A stretch of 23,959 bases of DNA. It comes from a virus. The stretch covers positions 322-24,280 of the IMG/VR virus record IMGVR_UViG_3300029448_000427. One strand, given 5' to 3'. How positions within the stretch are numbered: position 1 is the stretch's first letter; each line of letters begins with the position of its first letter. The notes beneath the pieces are model-generated. The model saw only the letters and a list, made by a program, of their open reading frames with translations. It ran no database searches and had not been told where the DNA came from. The translations under genes were made by a program, and so were the position numbers. Below, one piece after another: positions 319 to 14,701 of this stretch.

Positions 319-482
319 TCTGCCCTCGGTGCGGTAGCGAACACCAAGTGTTCGTCCACGGCCACACGCAGTGTGGCTTCTGTCATTTGGTAGTAGAAGA
401 GTGCTGTCAGGGAGAAGTTTGCGAGGTTTTACCTACACCGCCTTCGCCTGACGGCGAGGCGGCGGCAGATGAACTGCCGTAA
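315..482 (+). CDS. small zinc-ribbon protein
   Basis: The 55-aa product starts at ATG 315, overlapping the previous gene by 4 nt (ATGA), with a GAAGGGGAAGAGG leader as ribosome site. It opens with CPRCG and 15 residues later has CGFC, a classic two-knuckle zinc ribbon, then two more cysteines (EECC) and an acidic, proline-rich tail. Proteins this size with one ribbon are common in phages and usually unassigned; some contact RNA polymerase or DNA. An upstream in-frame start at 228 exists but would lie wholly inside the previous gene, so 315 is preferred. No specific function can be given. Confidence 0.7.
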   Translation: MICPRCGSEHQVFVHGHTQCGFCHLVVEECCQGEVCEVLPTPPSPDGEAAADELP

Positions 483-804
483 GTGTGGAAAAAAAACCAC
501 AGTCTACGATAGTAGACCCGCAAGCTACGGCATCCGACGCAGACGTAAATGTCTCTCCTGTCTTCATCGCGAGACATCAATCGAGACTTGGGAGATCGAG
601 GTTCAGAAAACGGAAGCCCACAAACCCCAACTGGTTCCGTCTCCACACCCTGCGAAAAAGAAAACAGCAACTCAGAAGAGACAGAAAGTCTCCAGCTATC
701 AAAATCTTGTGATGTCTGCTGAAGAAATAACAAAACTTACAGATGAAGAACTAGAAGACCTCATCATGTCTGGCTCAGTAGAGTTCGACGAGGACGAACT
801 GTAA
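469..804 (+). CDS. NrdR-type zinc-ribbon protein lacking the ATP-cone
   Basis: This 111-aa protein starts at 469, overlapping the previous gene by 14 nt. Residues 1-45 match the N-terminal zinc ribbon of the ribonucleotide-reductase repressor NrdR: CRKCG, then VYDSRPASYGIRRRRKC, then LSCLHRET. The paired CxxC knuckles and the DSR...IRRRRxCxxCxxR spacing are diagnostic. Genuine NrdR (about 150 aa) continues into an ATP-cone domain that senses ATP/dATP; here residues 50-80 are a basic linker and the C-terminus is an acidic helix (EEITKLTDEELEDLI). It is therefore a DNA-binding ribbon on a new tail, not a standard nucleotide-sensing repressor. No ribonucleotide reductase gene is visible in the window. 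Confidence 0.75.
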   Translation: MNCRKCGKKTTVYDSRPASYGIRRRRKCLSCLHRETSIETWEIEVQKTEAHKPQLVPSPHPAKKKTATQKRQKVSSYQNLVMSAEEITKLTDEELEDLIMSGSVEFDEDEL

Positions 805-1711: not shown

Positions 1712-1927
1712 TCATACACTAAAAGCTGTATGATTTGCAATACGATTTAGCTGGATATGTGTCTGAAACGTGTCACAAGACACCTTATGACGTGCCGCAA
1801 GAGAAACGTCTTGCAACGACTTGTAATATCTACAAATACTTTTAGGTGTCAAAGGTGTCTTGAAGGTGTCTGCAATACCCTTACCAAGGGTATCACAGAC
1901 AGTATTCAAACCGTCAGTGAGTGTCAT
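1712..1927 (-). CDS. candidate small HTH protein downstream of the integrase (Xis/regulator-like?)
   Basis: This 71-aa ORF starts within the last codons of the integrase (14-nt overlap). Residues 30-58 (KSICRYYKSLQDVSLAARHK and the following VSCDTFQTHIQ) resemble a helix-turn-helix: a helix with LAARHKVS leading into a recognition-like CDTFQTHI. A small DNA-binding protein coupled to an integrase would fit an excisionase or directionality factor. Against it, the ribosome site is poor, and its codons are unusually repetitive: GACAC recurs as Asp-Thr codons, so a DNA-level repeat may explain the open frame. I consider it about as likely real as not. Confidence 0.45.
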   Translation of the reverse strand: MTLTDGLNTVCDTLGKGIADTFKTPLTPKSICRYYKSLQDVSLAARHKVSCDTFQTHIQLNRIANHTAFSV

Positions 1928-2003
1928 AACCTATTGTTTCCTTTCTGTTTTTCACTAGGGTGTGTCTTGCAAAGCTGATGCCGTGTGTCTCAAATGTGTC
2001 ACG
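1759..2003. repeat. GTGTC repeat cluster around the integrase 3' end (possible att/arm sites)
   Basis: GTGTC occurs on the plus strand at 1759, 1770, 1846, 1855, 1866, 1921, 1962, 1985 and 1996, and inverted at 1779, often about 11 bp apart (one helical turn). Two 19-nt copies, GTGTCTGAAACGTGTCACA (1759-1777) and GTGTCTCAAATGTGTCACG (1985-2003), match at 16 of 19 positions and lie 226 bp apart. The cluster includes AGGTGTC three times within 1844-1870. Phage attP regions carry repeated integrase arm sites next to int, so this is a candidate recombination region. Some copies are also Asp-Thr codons of the overlapping frames, so coding repetition is an alternative. Confidence 0.45.
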
Positions 2004-2996
2004 CTTTTCAAGTAGGTCTACAGTAGTCTTTAGGTGTGACGGTGCGAGGTGAGCATATCGCATCACCATCGACAGCGTCGTATGCCCCAGCAAGTCTGCC
2101 ACTGCTCTCAGGCTTGCGCCCTTCTGCACCAACAGGCTGGCATATGTGTGCCGACAATCATGGGGATGAAAGTCTGTGATCCCGCAGATGTCGCAAGCCT
2201 CGTTGAAGAACGGGTAGAAGTCACCCCGATCCCACTCGATGCCGGAAAGCGTAGGAAAGATCAGGCCGGAGCCTCTCTTGCCCATTGCATCCACAGCCTC
2301 TCTTGGCAACGGTATAGACCGCACCAACTTCCTCTTCTTCTTGCCCTTGAAAGAGGTCACATGGACGTTACCACGCACCACATGATCCCACTTCATACGG
2401 AACAACTCACCGATCCGCACACCAGTGTAAAACAGAACAATAACCATTGCCCTTATCTCTTCTGGCGCACTATCAATCAGCGCATCCCGCTGTTCTTCAT
2501 CAAGCCAACGCACTCTGGAATCGTCGTAGACTGGCTTGACTATCTCAAGTCTTGGATATTCCAACCCATTGTTCTTCGCATGGGTAATCACTGCACTCAA
2601 AGTCTGCAATCGTCTGGCCACAGAATTAGCAGCTAGACCGCCATGATGCGCCCAAGACATAGCCTCTTCCAATGTCAGACTTGCAAACGTCTTGGACCCC
2701 AAAGCCCTGACAAGGATGTTGCCGTTCGAGACGTCTGTCTTGCCAGGTTTGGTCGGTCTGTTCAAGAAAGCGTCAACCGCAAACTCAACTGTTGTCGTAT
2801 CCTTCTTCTTCGTTTCGCCTTTGTATGATCCTTCGAGAGCGAGCAACAAAATCCTTTGCAACTCATCCTCTGCCATCCGCTTCTGGCTCATGTTAAAACC
2901 AGTGCTTTTTCTGACACGAACCTTCTCACCAAACTTGCTGGTGACAGTCCCTACAATGTGCCAGCTTCCGCTGCGTGGCTTCAAAGCTAACGACAT
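1914..2996 (-). CDS. int: tyrosine recombinase / phage integrase
   Basis: This 360-aa protein catalyses site-specific DNA strand exchange for prophage integration. The catalytic set is visible: Arg194 in YTGVRIGEL, a likely Lys217 in the beta-hairpin SFKGKKKRK, His279 and Arg282 in HPHDCRHTYAS, His305 in LLGH, and the nucleophile Tyr314 in MRYAHL. The N-terminus (about 1-60) is a short arm-binding-like region and 70-155 is the core-binding SAM-like domain, so the length is normal for the family. Its ATG overlaps the stop of the upstream LuxR-type gene (TAATG), implying joint expression. The C-terminal 30 residues extend past the usual end and lie in DNA rich in GTGTC repeats. No frameshift or missing residue is seen, so it should be active. 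Confidence 0.95.
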   Translation of the reverse strand: MSLALKPRSGSWHIVGTVTSKFGEKVRVRKSTGFNMSQKRMAEDELQRILLLALEGSYKGETKKKDTTTVEFAVDAFLNRPTKPGKTDVSNGNILVRALGSKTFASLTLEEAMSWAHHGGLAANSVARRLQTLSAVITHAKNNGLEYPRLEIVKPVYDDSRVRWLDEEQRDALIDSAPEEIRAMVIVLFYTGVRIGELFRMKWDHVVRGNVHVTSFKGKKKRKLVRSIPLPREAVDAMGKRGSGLIFPTLSGIEWDRGDFYPFFNEACDICGITDFHPHDCRHTYASLLVQKGASLRAVADLLGHTTLSMVMRYAHLAPSHLKTTVDLLEKRDTFETHGISFARHTLVKNRKETIGYDTH

Positions 2997-3762: not shown

Positions 3763-3837
<75 letters not shown>

Positions 3838-3903: not shown

Positions 3904-4365
3904 CTAGAAAAGTTGTTTCACGCTCGCGTCTAGGTCTTTGAAGCTGTCGTGACGTGCAATTACGGTCCCAACGATCATTGCTTCATCGCCGTTGTTCTCG
4001 ACCACCGATGCGCCACCCCCATCGTTGCGGCACAAGATGTAGTGTTTTGGGTCACGCCAAGCCACAATATAGTATCCATTGTCTGGAACTTCCGTCGCCA
4101 CGTCCTTCACCCAGTTGCCTTCGATCCGCATAACCGCTTTTTTCGTCGGGTCATACCCAGTCACAGACTTTGCCCACGTCTTCCCAGACCTCGGAGACCA
4201 GCCGCCACGCTTCTTTTTGGCTGACACCTTTGGTTTGCTTTCGATGTCTGCCTCACTAACCAGCCCATCTTTCACTGCCAGCGCACTCAACTCGAACATC
4301 AAGTCCTTCTTCTCCTCCATGTTCATAGCCCGATACATATTCACAACCATCTCAACTGCACTCAT
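3904..4365 (-). CDS. hypothetical protein, basic linker plus compact C-terminal domain
   Basis: This 153-aa product starts at ATG 4365, which has GGAGG upstream and overlaps the preceding TGA (TGATG); a GTG/ATG further upstream in frame lies inside the previous gene and is rejected. Residues 1-45 are helical (VEMVVNMYRAMNMEEKKDLM), 46-75 a Lys/Ser/Gly linker (KPKVSAKKKRGGWSPRSGKT), and 76-153 a probable beta-rich domain (VMRIEGNWVKDV, NGYYIVAWRDPKHYILCRND, GGGASVVE). No family is recognised. It is the last gene of the leftward small-gene operon before the tRNA. Confidence 0.75.
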   Translation of the reverse strand: MSAVEMVVNMYRAMNMEEKKDLMFELSALAVKDGLVSEADIESKPKVSAKKKRGGWSPRSGKTWAKSVTGYDPTKKAVMRIEGNWVKDVATEVPDNGYYIVAWRDPKHYILCRNDGGGASVVENNGDEAMIVGTVIARHDSFKDLDASVKQLF

Positions 4366-10318: not shown

Positions 10319-12187
10319 CTATTTCAGAACTCGGTTGCCGATGCCCTTGAGCACCGCTTTGTCTTGCGTGGTACACGCATTGAGAATGGTCATGTCGAAC
10401 GCCATGTCGATTGCCTTGGTCTCGTCACCAACCATGTCTGTGAACGCCACAATCGCTTGGGCGAACGCCATGAAGTTGCGTGGCGAGATAGGCTGTAAGA
10501 CCTTGGCGTTCGTGAACGCTTCAAGATGCTCGGTGATGTACTTGCCCACCTTGTCAAGCGTGTCTGCCTTCAGCTTGTGCTGGCTCTCAATCAGCTTGCG
10601 ACGCTCGGTGGACGTCATGTATGGGACATGCACGAACGTCTTGAACCTGTTGAGAAACGCTTGCGATTGGACCCTCGCACCCTGATACATGCCGAACTCA
10701 TCGCCTTGGCCAACGGTGTTGGCTGTAGCGAAGGCGCGGAACATCGGGTGTGGCTTGATGAGACGGCCACCATCCTCTGTCAGCAACAGGCCGTTGCCCT
10801 CCAGAGCACGTTGCATCACATAGCTGACGTCAGCCCGAATGAAGTCGCACTCGTCAAAGCAAGCAATGCACGGTGTCTGCAACATCTGCGGCAGAATACC
10901 CTCAACGAACGTAGATGCAGTCGCACCGCCATCGTTCACGAGTGTGTCACGACCCAGCAAGTCAGCGCGGCTGATCTCGCTGTCGAAGTTGACACGCAAG
11001 AACGGAAAGCAAGTGAAGGCGGCAACCTGTTCGAGCAGGGTGGTCTTGCCACAGCCTGTGTGACCGTGAAGCCACTGCGGCTGGTTGGTAACGATGGAGT
11101 ACAGAACCATCGTCAACTGGTCCTTGCGGAAGATGTAGCTGTCATCACGCGTTGGCACGAGAGGATGCGGTGCGTCCCACTCCCACACAGGTATCTTGAA
11201 CTCCAAGCCCTTGCGCTTGATACCAGTGAAGCCAAAGACATCAGCCGCAACCTTGAGCCTGACCTTGCCAGACGGATACGCACCAGACGCAGCCGCTGGA
11301 GCAGATGCAGATGCCATCATCGAAGCCTCTGCCTCCGCCTTGGCTTGCGCCTCGGCAATCTTCTCAGACGCGCCGTTGATCTCCTCGATCAGCGTAGCAA
11401 TCGGTGGCAGCTTGGCGTTCTTGAGTGCGAGGTCAATGAGCGAAGACTCCGCACCTGCTGGCACTGTGTACTTGGTTGCCGTAGGCTCTGCTTTCGGTTT
11501 TGGCGCGGCATCGTCGAACTGCAACTCGGTCATCGCGATGGCATTTTTGACACGCTCTGGCAACTCCGAGTACGCAGAAATCTCAAATGCACCACGCAGT
11601 CCGACCATGTTCTGAGCCGCATCACACTTGCCATTCCACTCTTCAATCGAGTGATATTTACGCATGGCTGAGAAAGCATCGTCCGAGGATACCCCGCACC
11701 GCTCGACAACGTGGTCGTGTATGTCGATGATGTCCTGCAAGCCGAATGTCTCTGGCGCATAAGCAACGGTTGGCAAGAACTCGGCATCACCCATGACGGC
11801 GGCGTTGTTGGCGGCCACCATCTCGGATGTGAGTTTGTTCGGACGCCCGAACGCATAGCCAGACTTGCTTGTGGGCGAGGCTGTGCCGTCAGTGGCTGGG
11901 CTGCGAATTGCCTCAGTCACCTCATTCCACTTGACTGAACCCATGCAAAGAGCCGTCAGCGTGTCGAGGTCGAGCGCATCACGAATAGCAGACCACGTTG
12001 GCCTAACCTTCATCTGATGTGGCTCGTCACCGCAGATGGGTGAGCGTTCGATAAGCGCAGCTAGGTTTGTGAGCCGTGCTTTAACCTCAAGTATCGGCGA
12101 GACCAGCTTGCGAAGCTCGGCTCGTGTGGCGGAATAGCCTCCGAGGCCGTATGCCTTGCGGAGGTCGTCTGTGGTTGGTTTAGTCAT
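10319..12187 (-). CDS. CobS/MoxR-like AAA+ ATPase
   Basis: This 622-aa protein carries a C-terminal AAA_5/MoxR-type ATPase domain: Walker A GHTGCGKT (375-382), Walker B CIACFDEC (440-447, acidic pair Asp445-Glu446), a sensor-1 ATAN (487-490), and an Arg-finger candidate in FLNRF (Arg514). The same order is found in CobS, the ATPase of the aerobic cobaltochelatase, but CobS is about 330 aa, whereas here the first 310 residues are an additional helical region ending in an Ala-rich coiled segment (AEAQAKAEAEASMM). The start is ATG 12187 with AGGAG; an in-frame TTG nine bases upstream is too close to that site. It pairs with the VWA gene 10 nt downstream; such ATPases form hexameric rings that act through their VWA partner. 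Confidence 0.9.
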   Translation of the reverse strand: MTKPTTDDLRKAYGLGGYSATRAELRKLVSPILEVKARLTNLAALIERSPICGDEPHQMKVRPTWSAIRDALDLDTLTALCMGSVKWNEVTEAIRSPATDGTASPTSKSGYAFGRPNKLTSEMVAANNAAVMGDAEFLPTVAYAPETFGLQDIIDIHDHVVERCGVSSDDAFSAMRKYHSIEEWNGKCDAAQNMVGLRGAFEISAYSELPERVKNAIAMTELQFDDAAPKPKAEPTATKYTVPAGAESSLIDLALKNAKLPPIATLIEEINGASEKIAEAQAKAEAEASMMASASAPAAASGAYPSGKVRLKVAADVFGFTGIKRKGLEFKIPVWEWDAPHPLVPTRDDSYIFRKDQLTMVLYSIVTNQPQWLHGHTGCGKTTLLEQVAAFTCFPFLRVNFDSEISRADLLGRDTLVNDGGATASTFVEGILPQMLQTPCIACFDECDFIRADVSYVMQRALEGNGLLLTEDGGRLIKPHPMFRAFATANTVGQGDEFGMYQGARVQSQAFLNRFKTFVHVPYMTSTERRKLIESQHKLKADTLDKVGKYITEHLEAFTNAKVLQPISPRNFMAFAQAIVAFTDMVGDETKAIDMAFDMTILNACTTQDKAVLKGIGNRVLK

Positions 12188-12226: not shown

Positions 12227-12297
12227 CAGACACCTTTGGTTGTGTATAACCTCTTAGACAACGCATAGTCAACAACTTACGGTGTGTAAGGTGTCTG
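12227..12297. repeat. 10-bp perfect inverted repeat bracketing the ATPase promoter
   Basis: CAGACACCTT at 12227-12236 and AAGGTGTCTG at 12288-12297 are exact complements, 51 bp apart, and flank the promoter of the CobS-like gene. The same 10-mer is present once more at 1863-1872, with close variants at 1852-1861 and 1777-1786. The arrangement fits two operators around one promoter, a geometry suited to looping. The binding protein is unknown. Confidence 0.6.
12243..12272 (-). promoter_or_regulatory. sigma70-like promoter of the CobS/CobT-like operon
   Basis: On the minus strand, TTGACT (12267-12272) is followed after 18 nt by TATACA (12243-12248); a 17-nt register would give TTATAC. It lies about 55 nt upstream of the ATPase start and just after a strong terminator, the expected position for a fresh promoter. 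The -35 matches the consensus at 5 of 6 positions and the -10 (TATACA) at 4 of 6. Confidence 0.6.
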
Positions 12298-13748: not shown

Positions 13749-14176
13749 GATTGGCCTCCTGTGTGAGCGTGGGTGAAACCCTGCGCTCGCGCTCACGGCG
13801 AGGCAGGTCGGAGAGCAGTTTTGCTGTCCACCCATAAAGTTCCTTCGGAGTGCGCCCCTGTGTGTGTACGCGAGGACGACCCGACAAATGCTGTGCTGGT
13901 AAGTTTTTGGAATGATTGGAACGACCTGCCGAAAGGCATTGTGTGGCCGCACGGAAGGTGTCACACGCAAACGTGCAAGGTGTGATGCGCTACATGCGAG
14001 GCAAAATCCCCTTTTCAAGGGTGCTGAAACCGAGCAAAAACAGCGACTTAGCGATGACCAAGGCGCGTATGTGTCACAGACGCAGGATCACACACGGGGG
14101 GGCGGGGGTCATGCCGCCGGAGGGTCGCGCGTCGGGTGAGTCACCTCCCCACCCCCGCGAGTAATCGGAGCAAATT
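13749..14176. promoter_or_regulatory. 428-bp non-coding divergent control region
   Basis: No convincing gene is present. The region separates leftward from rightward transcription. It contains a nested hairpin (GTGAGCG...CGCTCAC, 13763-13796), AAGGTGTC at 13955-13962 with a related AAGGTGT at 13977-13983 (22 bp apart), an inverted TCACAC/GTGTGA pair, a G-run (14096-14108) complementary to a C-run (14152-14158), and the palindrome GGTGAGTCACC (14135-14145). No clean sigma70 promoter can be read in either direction, so late transcription may depend on a phage factor. Confidence 0.6.
14096..14158. other. G/C-rich dyad upstream of terminase, candidate packaging site
   Basis: Seven G, one C and five G (14096-14108) are complementary over 7 bp to CCCCCGC (14152-14158), and enclose the palindrome GGTGAGTCACC and CG-rich steps. 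It lies 19 bp before the small-terminase start, where cos or pac sites of many phages lie. No known cohesive end is recognised; this is a positional inference. Confidence 0.3.
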
Positions 14177-14701
14177 TTGGAAACGTCCAAAGGAAGAGTG
14201 GAAATAAAGTGCAAGGTCTGCGGAAAAATCTTTGAAACCAAAAAGTTTCACGAAGAAAGACGCAGGTTTTGCTCCATGTCGTGCAGAAAAGCAGACAAAC
14301 AGGTGAGAAACATGACGGCCATAGCCAAAAAAGCAGACGAAACCAGACTAACCCCGCAGCAATCGTCACAGATACGCGGACAAATCGCCAATTACGTCAC
14401 AGACCAGATCAATCTGGCCCATGCCGTAGTCACTGGCTCGGTAGACTGGAACCCGACCCAAGCTCGCGTCTTCGGGATGCTCCTGAACAAGGTAGTCCCA
14501 GACCTGAACGCCAGTTTTCACCAGCACGAGCACGAAGTTAAGCAGCTCACAGACTTATCGCGCTCCGAACTGGAGGCCATCGCCCAGGGCGTGGCCTCCA
14601 TAGACGTCGAGTCCCAAGAAGACGAGGCAGAACAAGCCGGAAAGATGGCTTACGGCAACATCATCATCGAGGAGAACCCATCCTATGACAGTAACCAATA
14701 A
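14177..14701 (+). CDS. terminase small-subunit-like protein with N-terminal zinc finger
   Basis: The 174-aa product begins at TTG 14177, preceded by GGAG at ideal spacing; no ATG fits. Residues 12-36 have CxxC and CxxxC (Cys12, Cys15, Cys32, Cys36), a zinc-finger-like site. Residues about 70-150 contain VTGSVDWNPTQARVFGMLLN and KVVPDLNASF followed by LTDLSRSELEAIAQG, the pattern common in small terminases directly ahead of TerL. Small terminases recognise the packaging site and load TerL. The start codon sits in a hairpin (TTTGGA-AACG-TCCAAA, 14176-14191), which might limit translation. Context two genes upstream of TerL supports the call. Confidence 0.75.
   Translation: METSKGRVEIKCKVCGKIFETKKFHEERRRFCSMSCRKADKQVRNMTAIAKKADETRLTPQQSSQIRGQIANYVTDQINLAHAVVTGSVDWNPTQARVFGMLLNKVVPDLNASFHQHEHEVKQLTDLSRSELEAIAQGVASIDVESQEDEAEQAGKMAYGNIIIEENPSYDSNQ

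What the first reader, a model, noticed from the sequence alone, without database searches (positions are those of the whole stretch)
12227..12297. Perfect 10-bp inverted repeat brackets the ATPase operon promoter and recurs at two other control regions
CAGACACCTT and AAGGTGTCTG flank the promoter. The core AAGGTGTC is also found at 1852, 1863 and (inverted) 1779-1786 behind the integrase, and at 13955 in the divergent early/late region; one further copy (4224-4231) is inside a gene. By chance an 8-mer should occur less than once in 24 kb on both strands. A common repressor or activator, perhaps the LuxR-type or NrdR-like protein, could bind all three regions.
Basis: partly seen in the sequence, partly recalled or inferred. 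Interest (0 to 1): 0.6.

Follow-up and report, generated by a model that had tools for sequence, protein, structure and literature searches.

The report
Marine phage early-promoter repressor operators
The repeated DNA word marks two different switches of a temperate ocean phage: paired docking sites over the promoter of its early genes, most likely for a small Cro-like repressor encoded elsewhere in this phage family, and, near the integrase, the docking sites of the integrase itself beside a 13-base core that matches a bacterial threonine-tRNA gene.

Summary
In detail: AAGGTGTC occurs 7 times (0.84 expected), and the perfect 10-bp inverted repeat brackets the cobS-operon promoter. The single-motif reading is only partly right. 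The window is a fragment of a CRP-810-type temperate marine phage. Comparison with relatives separates two signals. (1) At the cobS promoter the conserved unit is a 14-bp palindrome, ACACC-N4-GGTGT, covering -10/+1 and abutting -35, with centres 21, 42-44 or 63 bp apart. It is ~60-fold enriched at this promoter and ~27-fold upstream of a 75-aa Cro/YdaS-like HTH gene (CRP-810 gp24). In the complete CRP-810 genome 7 of 22 GGTGTC copies are intergenic (1.7 expected). Most likely gp24 represses the early operons; binding is inferred, and gp24 lies outside this fragment. (2) The copies behind the integrase lie in attP: tandem 11-bp GACAC-type repeats on both sides of CCCTTACCAAGGG, the anticodon stem-loop of tRNA-Thr(GGT). 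They are most likely integrase arm-type sites. The phage also carries a complete tRNA-Thr(GGT), which fits tRNA-dependent lysogeny. The copies at 13955 and 4223 are unexplained or chance. LuxR-type and NrdR-like binding is not supported. New member of a known kind, undescribed in this phage family.

The parts
12230..12243 (.).
   Evidence: perfect palindrome at the same place in L017 and CRP-810
12272..12285 (.). Operator B, ACAACTTACGGTGT (- strand ACACCGTAAGTTGT): second palindrome (1 mismatch), overlaps the first base of -35; centre 42 bp from operator A
   Evidence: same register in L028 (ACACCcaagGGTGTTGAC), one base off in CRP-810
12288..12297 (+).
   Evidence: kept in L016 and L017
12227..12236 (-).
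   Evidence: GGTGTC kept at this place in CRP-810, L016, L017, L020, L023-L027 and others
12243..12272 (-). cobS early promoter TTGACT-N18-TATACA
   Evidence: conserved TTGAC...GTTATAC in most cobS relatives
10319..12187 (-). CobS-like AAA ATPase, first gene of the operon
   Evidence: phrog_249; CRP-810 gp06; 47% identity
8371..10308 (-). CobT-like protein
   Evidence: CRP-810 gp07
3763..3837 (-). complete phage tRNA-Thr(GGT)
   Evidence: ARAGORN; Rfam 72.6 bits
2996..3679 (-). LuxR-type HTH protein, same operon direction
   Evidence: GerE E=8.7e-10; CRP-810 gp13 homologue
1914..2996 (-). tyrosine integrase, distal gene of the same strand
   Evidence: 45% identical to CRP-810 gp14
1878..1890 (.). 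attP core CCCTTACCAAGGG (anticodon stem-loop of tRNA-Thr(GGT)), inside a 16-bp inverted repeat 1867-1901
   Evidence: [quoted passage not shown]
1985..2000 (-). integrase arm-type tandem pair GACACATTTGAGACAC
   Evidence: 89% direct repeat of 1758-1776
   Evidence: conserved in L004
1759..1774 (-). arm-type tandem pair GACACGTTTCAGACAC
1779..1786 (-). AAGGTGTC as inverted arm-type half-site (GTGTC-N4-GACAC) next to the tandem pair at 1759-1774
   Evidence: same arrangement in CRP-810, G032, G004, G010
13955..13962 (+). isolated AAGGTGTC upstream of the divergent 133-aa gene; GGTGTCACACG kept in L016 and L017 but no palindrome; role unknown

Best explanation
The inverted repeat is the visible part of a pair of repressor operators (ACACC-N4-GGTGT, 42 bp apart, four helical turns) lying on the same DNA face over the early cobS-cobT-...-LuxR-integrase promoter. 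A small Cro/YdaS-like XRE-fold protein, the gp24 homologue of this CRP-810-type phage (encoded outside the fragment, in the prim-pol region), binds as dimers and blocks RNA polymerase, and in the same way controls its own divergent promoter and the HTH/recombination promoter on the other side of the prim-pol gene. The look-alike copies behind the integrase are mainly arm-type binding sites of the integrase in attP. Shown: the palindrome, its spacing, its enrichment and its place at the same promoters across the family; gp24's sequence, predicted fold and position beside the operator; the attP core and tandem arm repeats. Inferred: that gp24 is the binding protein, that it represses, that this phage has gp24, and that integrase binds the arm repeats.
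For: Spacing scan: N=4 is the highest peak (11 perfect, 36 with up to 1 mismatch). Non-redundant sets: cobS upstreams 10 observed vs 0.17 expected (5 of 12 sequences), gp24 upstreams 7 vs 0.26 (7 of 24); the nine other permutations of the half-site give 0-3. Centre distances 42 (window, L017), 43 (CRP-810, L027), 44 (L028), 63 and 21 (L066). CRP-810, 57.7 kb, has only five sites up to 1 mismatch, all between genes: 1682 and 1725 at cobS, 14406, 16987 beside gp24, 31261. G005, G006, G022, G023 have perfect sites beside gp24 and about 2.5 kb away across the prim-pol gene. gp24 found in 18 of 30 records, many of the rest short fragments. gp24: weak Pfam YdaS and P22_Cro matches, AlphaFold pLDDT 87.6, nearest solved folds include N15 Cro, Xfaso 1 Cro, P22 Cro, P22 c2. 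GGTGTC intergenic enrichment in CRP-810, P about 0.001. The contig sharing parts of the window's left end at 71-77% DNA identity (L205/G036) has gp24 beside a perfect operator.
Against: gp24 is not in the 24-kb fragment, so its presence in this very phage is inferred. In the window alone two sites with one mismatch are not significant (27 of 100 shuffles); the case rests on relatives. Seven of 12 non-redundant cobS upstreams lack a site at up to 1 mismatch, and some relatives (L037, G007, G008) lack GGTGTC at cobS. Pfam matches of gp24 are below the curated cut-offs and the structure matches are the common HTH fold (best E 0.055; Z about 5-6). No co-variation of the recognition helix with operator sequence was established. 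GGTGTC also occurs in attP, so one protein for both is not excluded.
Confidence: 0.66

Rival explanations
1. The integrase itself is the common protein: it binds GACACC-type sites in attP and, because int lies distally in the same operon, represses the cobS promoter (autoregulation as known for P4 Int, from memory).
For: Both places share GACACC; int is on the same strand downstream of cobS; in CRP-810 intergenic GGTGTC copies fall in both the cobS promoter and attP.
Against: Different architecture: 14-bp inward palindromes at promoters against 11-bp tandem GACAC repeats and outward GTGTC-N4-GACAC in attP. gp24-promoter operators such as ACACCtcaaGGTGTa do not need the flanking G/C of the arm sites. 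Many operators lie by gp24 and the HTH gene, far from int.
Confidence: 0.12
2. The LuxR-type protein (CRP-810 gp13) is the regulator, as the CRP-810 authors suggested in general terms for the lysis-lysogeny switch.
For: It has a GerE HTH, is encoded in the operon, and co-occurs with integrase in many relatives.
Against: G007, G008 and G009 have no LuxR match, yet keep GGTGT in the gp24 promoter (G007, G009) and G009 keeps GGTGTC in the cobS promoter (L030); G009 is a 44.7-kb partial record. Operators sit beside gp24, not beside luxR.
Confidence: 0.07
3. A host transcription factor or the HTH/Zn protein encoded next to the second operator (CRP-810 14023-14316) is the binder; gp24 only happens to lie beside its sites.
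For: An operator also lies upstream of that HTH gene; host factors were not tested.
Against: The family is predicted to infect different bacterial groups (PMC11288001), which argues for a phage-encoded protein; gp24 is the small Cro-like regulator directly adjacent to the sites in most records.
Confidence: 0.13
4. The recurrence is chance or G/T-rich composition.
For: The window alone has only two palindromes with one mismatch, within shuffle range.
Against: Seven 8-mers vs 0.84 and the cross-family enrichment at fixed promoter positions.
Confidence: 0.02

Closest known systems
Lambdoid CI/Cro operator systems, 434-type 5-4-5 operators
   Same: Several short palindromes, 5-bp half-sites separated by 4 bp (14 bp in all, as in 434, from memory), overlapping -35 and -10/+1, repeated at several early promoters, small XRE-fold regulator beside its own divergent promoter
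   Different: Operator sequence ACACC-N4-GGTGT; operators 21, 42-44 or 63 bp apart; no separate CI-type repressor was identified; the controlled operon is cobS-cobT...int
YdaS of prophage CP-933P (Cro analogue, PMC8630535)
   Same: Small HTH, weak Pfam YdaS match, binds a divergent immunity promoter and a second distant promoter
   Different: Repeats there are 18-bp palindromes with consensus GTTTAGTAA next to a PaaR2 (CI-like) repressor; gp24 is below Pfam's cut-off
Phage CRP-810 and CRP-810-type phages (PMC11288001)
   Same: Same phage family, gene order, integrase, tRNA-Thr, attP core of tRNA-Thr
   Different: The words repressor and promoter do not occur in that paper's main text
tRNA-dependent lysogeny of mycobacteriophages such as Fionnbharth (PMC10865867)
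   Same: attP shares only a short core with a host tRNA and the phage carries a complete tRNA of the same isotype
   Different: tRNA-Thr(GGT) in a marine family; requirement of the tRNA not tested
Phage 186 Apl / P2 Cox (from memory)
   Different: The two site classes here differ in architecture; no such protein identified

Membership tests
Lambdoid CI/Cro-type operator-repressor system | Short palindromic operators overlapping early promoters | tested here: met
Lambdoid CI/Cro-type operator-repressor system | Several operators per promoter on one helical face | tested here: met
   Centre distances 42-44, 63 and 21 bp; sequence only, cooperativity untested
Lambdoid CI/Cro-type operator-repressor system | Small HTH_XRE regulator gene beside its own operator | tested here: met
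   gp24 in relatives; fold; not within the window
Lambdoid CI/Cro-type operator-repressor system | Regulator binds the operators and represses | not testable with these tools
   needs gel shift and reporter assay
YdaS/P22 Cro protein families (Pfam) | Score above curated cut-off | tested here: not met
   best 23.7 bits vs 30 for YdaS, 18.1 vs 30.2 for P22_Cro; not filed as a member
attP of a tRNA-targeting tyrosine integrase | Core identical to part of a tRNA gene next to int | tested here: met
   CCCTTACCAAGGG 1878-1890; CRP-810 counterpart PCR-verified (PMC11288001)
attP of a tRNA-targeting tyrosine integrase | Arm-type repeats on both sides of the core | tested here: met
   tandem 11-bp pairs on both sides; background 0.067 per 550 bp
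tRNA-dependent lysogeny | Short (~10 bp) common core that does not rebuild the tRNA | tested here: met
   core not continued into a T-arm/acceptor half in window, CRP-810 and others; host attB of this phage not seen
[quoted passage not shown]
   tRNA-Thr(GGT) 3763-3837
tRNA-dependent lysogeny | Phage tRNA required for lysogeny | not testable with these tools
   needs tRNA deletion mutant
NrdR regulon | NrdR box ACACWATATATWGTGT at the promoter | tested here: not met
   one 3-mismatch hit at 4030, none at 12.2 kb
NrdR regulon | Regulator with Zn ribbon plus ATP-cone | tested here: not met
   469-804 matches only Zn_ribbon_NrdR

The most novel reading that the evidence does not exclude
One DNA-binding protein of this phage family (gp24, or the integrase acting as repressor of its own operon) reads the GACACC half-site both in attP and at the early promoters, so integration/excision and early transcription are switched by the same protein without a separate CI repressor.
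Probability: 0.17. Interest if true: 0.62.

Novelty: new member of a known kind. Interest (0 to 1): 0.52.

Why it matters
CRP-810-type phages are globally distributed temperate marine phages (251 related genomes reported, PMC11288001), but no repressor or operator was described for them and LuxR was the suggested switch. A defined operator, a candidate 75-aa regulator and a short list of controlled promoters make the lysis-lysogeny control of this family directly testable. The attP/tRNA-Thr arrangement extends tRNA-dependent lysogeny, described in mycobacteriophages, to a marine family in which both solutions (carry a spare tRNA, or carry the tRNA 3' half in attP) occur side by side.

Tried and rejected
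AAGGTGTC as a single regulon motif: rejected, because two architectures are mixed. NrdR box: no match at the promoter. The 71-aa ORF across attP as a gene: differences to L004 by codon position 19/16/12, no third-position excess. Sigma-70 scanner: found no promoter because of its rule for the last base of -10. Operator palindrome within the window alone: not significant at 1 or 2 mismatches. 13955 as an operator: no palindrome, and GGTGTCACA is absent from CRP-810, G004, G005 and G007 (one copy in G006). Sequence search of the gp24 alignment against the PDB gave no plausible relative. The genome-contig scan with integrase found only distant integrases. Co-variation between recognition helix and operator: looked at by eye, inconclusive.

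Full report
Source. The window is a 24-kb IMG/VR fragment (record of 24,280 bases) of a phage whose nearest isolate is Roseobacter phage CRP-810 (terminase 77% identity; integrase 44%). Gene order cobS-cobT-...-LuxR-integrase is the same as in CRP-810. Near relatives L004, L016 and L017 are mostly 85-98% identical over their parts.

Observation. AAGGTGTC occurs seven times against 0.84 expected, never reached in 100 shuffles. The perfect 10-bp inverted repeat is at 12227-12236 and 12288-12297. Only one coordinate was off, by one base (4223).

What is conserved at the promoter. Seventy-three cobS relatives were fetched. Many of their promoters align on TTGAC...GTTATAC, with GGTGTC just after -10 in most of those. 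The aligned sequences show that the unit is ACACC-N4-GGTGT: of spacings 0-12, N=4 stands out with 11 perfect and 36 near matches. In non-redundant sequence sets the palindrome (up to one mismatch) occurs 10 times in 12 cobS upstreams (0.17 expected from whole-genome density; sites in 5 of the 12) and 7 times in 24 gp24 upstreams (0.26 expected), whereas the nine other arrangements of the same letters give 0-3. In the window the two sites are 12230-12243 (over -10/+1) and 12272-12285 (touching -35); their centres are 42 bp apart. Other relatives have 43, 44, 63 and 21 bp, close to whole numbers of helical turns. Taken alone, the window's two palindromes are within shuffle range; the argument is comparative.

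Where else the operator lies. In the complete CRP-810 genome there are five sites with up to one mismatch, all between genes: two at cobS, one upstream of an unannotated HTH gene before gp22, one between gp24 and gp25, one before gp36. GGTGTC itself is intergenic in 7 of 22 copies, 1.7 expected, P about 0.001. In G005, G006, G022 and G023, perfect palindromes lie beside the gp24 homologue and about 2.5 kb away on the other side of the prim-pol gene.

Candidate regulator. gp24 is a 75-aa protein with weak matches to YdaS and P22 Cro (below cut-off), a confidently predicted HTH fold (pLDDT 87.6), and N15, Xfaso 1 and P22 Cro among its structural neighbours (weak scores, common fold). It is present in 18 of 30 records and in 49 loci found directly; its RTAPYGWV segment is invariant among the 23 aligned homologues and most of the upstream regions carry GGTGT sites. 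The related contig L205/G036, which shares the window's left end, has gp24 with a perfect operator. YdaS of CP-933P is described as a Cro analogue that binds a divergent promoter and a second one (PMC8630535). I therefore propose repression of the early operons by gp24. Binding and repression were not shown.

The copies behind the integrase. 1878-1890 is CCCTTACCAAGGG, the anticodon stem-loop of tRNA-Thr(GGT). [quoted passage not shown] On both sides lie tandem 11-bp GACAC-type pairs: 1985-2000, 1855-1870 and 1759-1774. Such pairs flank the core in CRP-810, G006, G032, G010, G022, G020, G004 and G036, on one side in G005 and G043, against 0.067 per 550 bp of background; none lies near the integrases of G007, G038 and G013, which have no tRNA-type core there, and none was found by this pattern in G039, G040, G044 and G048, which do have a core. 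This is the layout of arm-type integrase sites. The 71-aa ORF over this stretch does not show a coding pattern.

tRNA. The window, L004, CRP-810 and ten further records have an isolated core (in G020 an imperfect one) plus a complete tRNA-Thr(GGT); G032, G044 and G022, and G004 with tRNA-Ser, lack a phage tRNA near int and have a core that runs on into the tRNA 3' half. That is the distribution expected for tRNA-dependent lysogeny (PMC10865867) and its alternative. The CRP-810 sections read do not discuss it.

Verdict. Observation confirmed; interpretation partly supported; a new member of a known kind.

Noticed in passing
window 3763-3837 and 1878-1890; L018 9328-9402; records G005, G006, G010, G012, G020, G036, G039, G040, G043, G048 versus G032, G044, G022, G004: Two alternative solutions in one phage family: 13 records have an isolated tRNA-Thr core plus a complete phage tRNA-Thr(GGT); 4 records have no phage tRNA near int but an attP that continues into the tRNA 3' half. 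Fits tRNA-dependent lysogeny.
   Followed up: partly
window 12477 and 13845 (- strand); CRP-810 844, 1762, 57604; G004 282, 1405: A repeated leader element AAGGRACTT (often in a small hairpin, TCCCGAAGGGA) lies downstream of early promoters, including the cobS leader of CRP-810. Function unknown.
   Followed up: partly
window 13955-13990: GGTGTCACACG and AAGGTGTG 22 bp apart, upstream of the divergent 133-aa gene; GGTGTCACACG kept in L016 and L017 but not elsewhere.
   Followed up: partly
L018 14023-14316 (- strand): Unannotated 97-aa ORF in CRP-810 with weak HTH matches and a CxxC Zn motif upstream of the Holliday-junction resolvase gene; homologue in G023; next to an operator.
   Followed up: partly
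window 469-804: NrdR-like Zn-ribbon protein without an ATP-cone match.
   Followed up: no
G005 28261, G006 31812, G023 11047: A perfect ACACC-N4-GGTGT palindrome inside the start of the gp25 homologue, conserved in three records.
   Followed up: no
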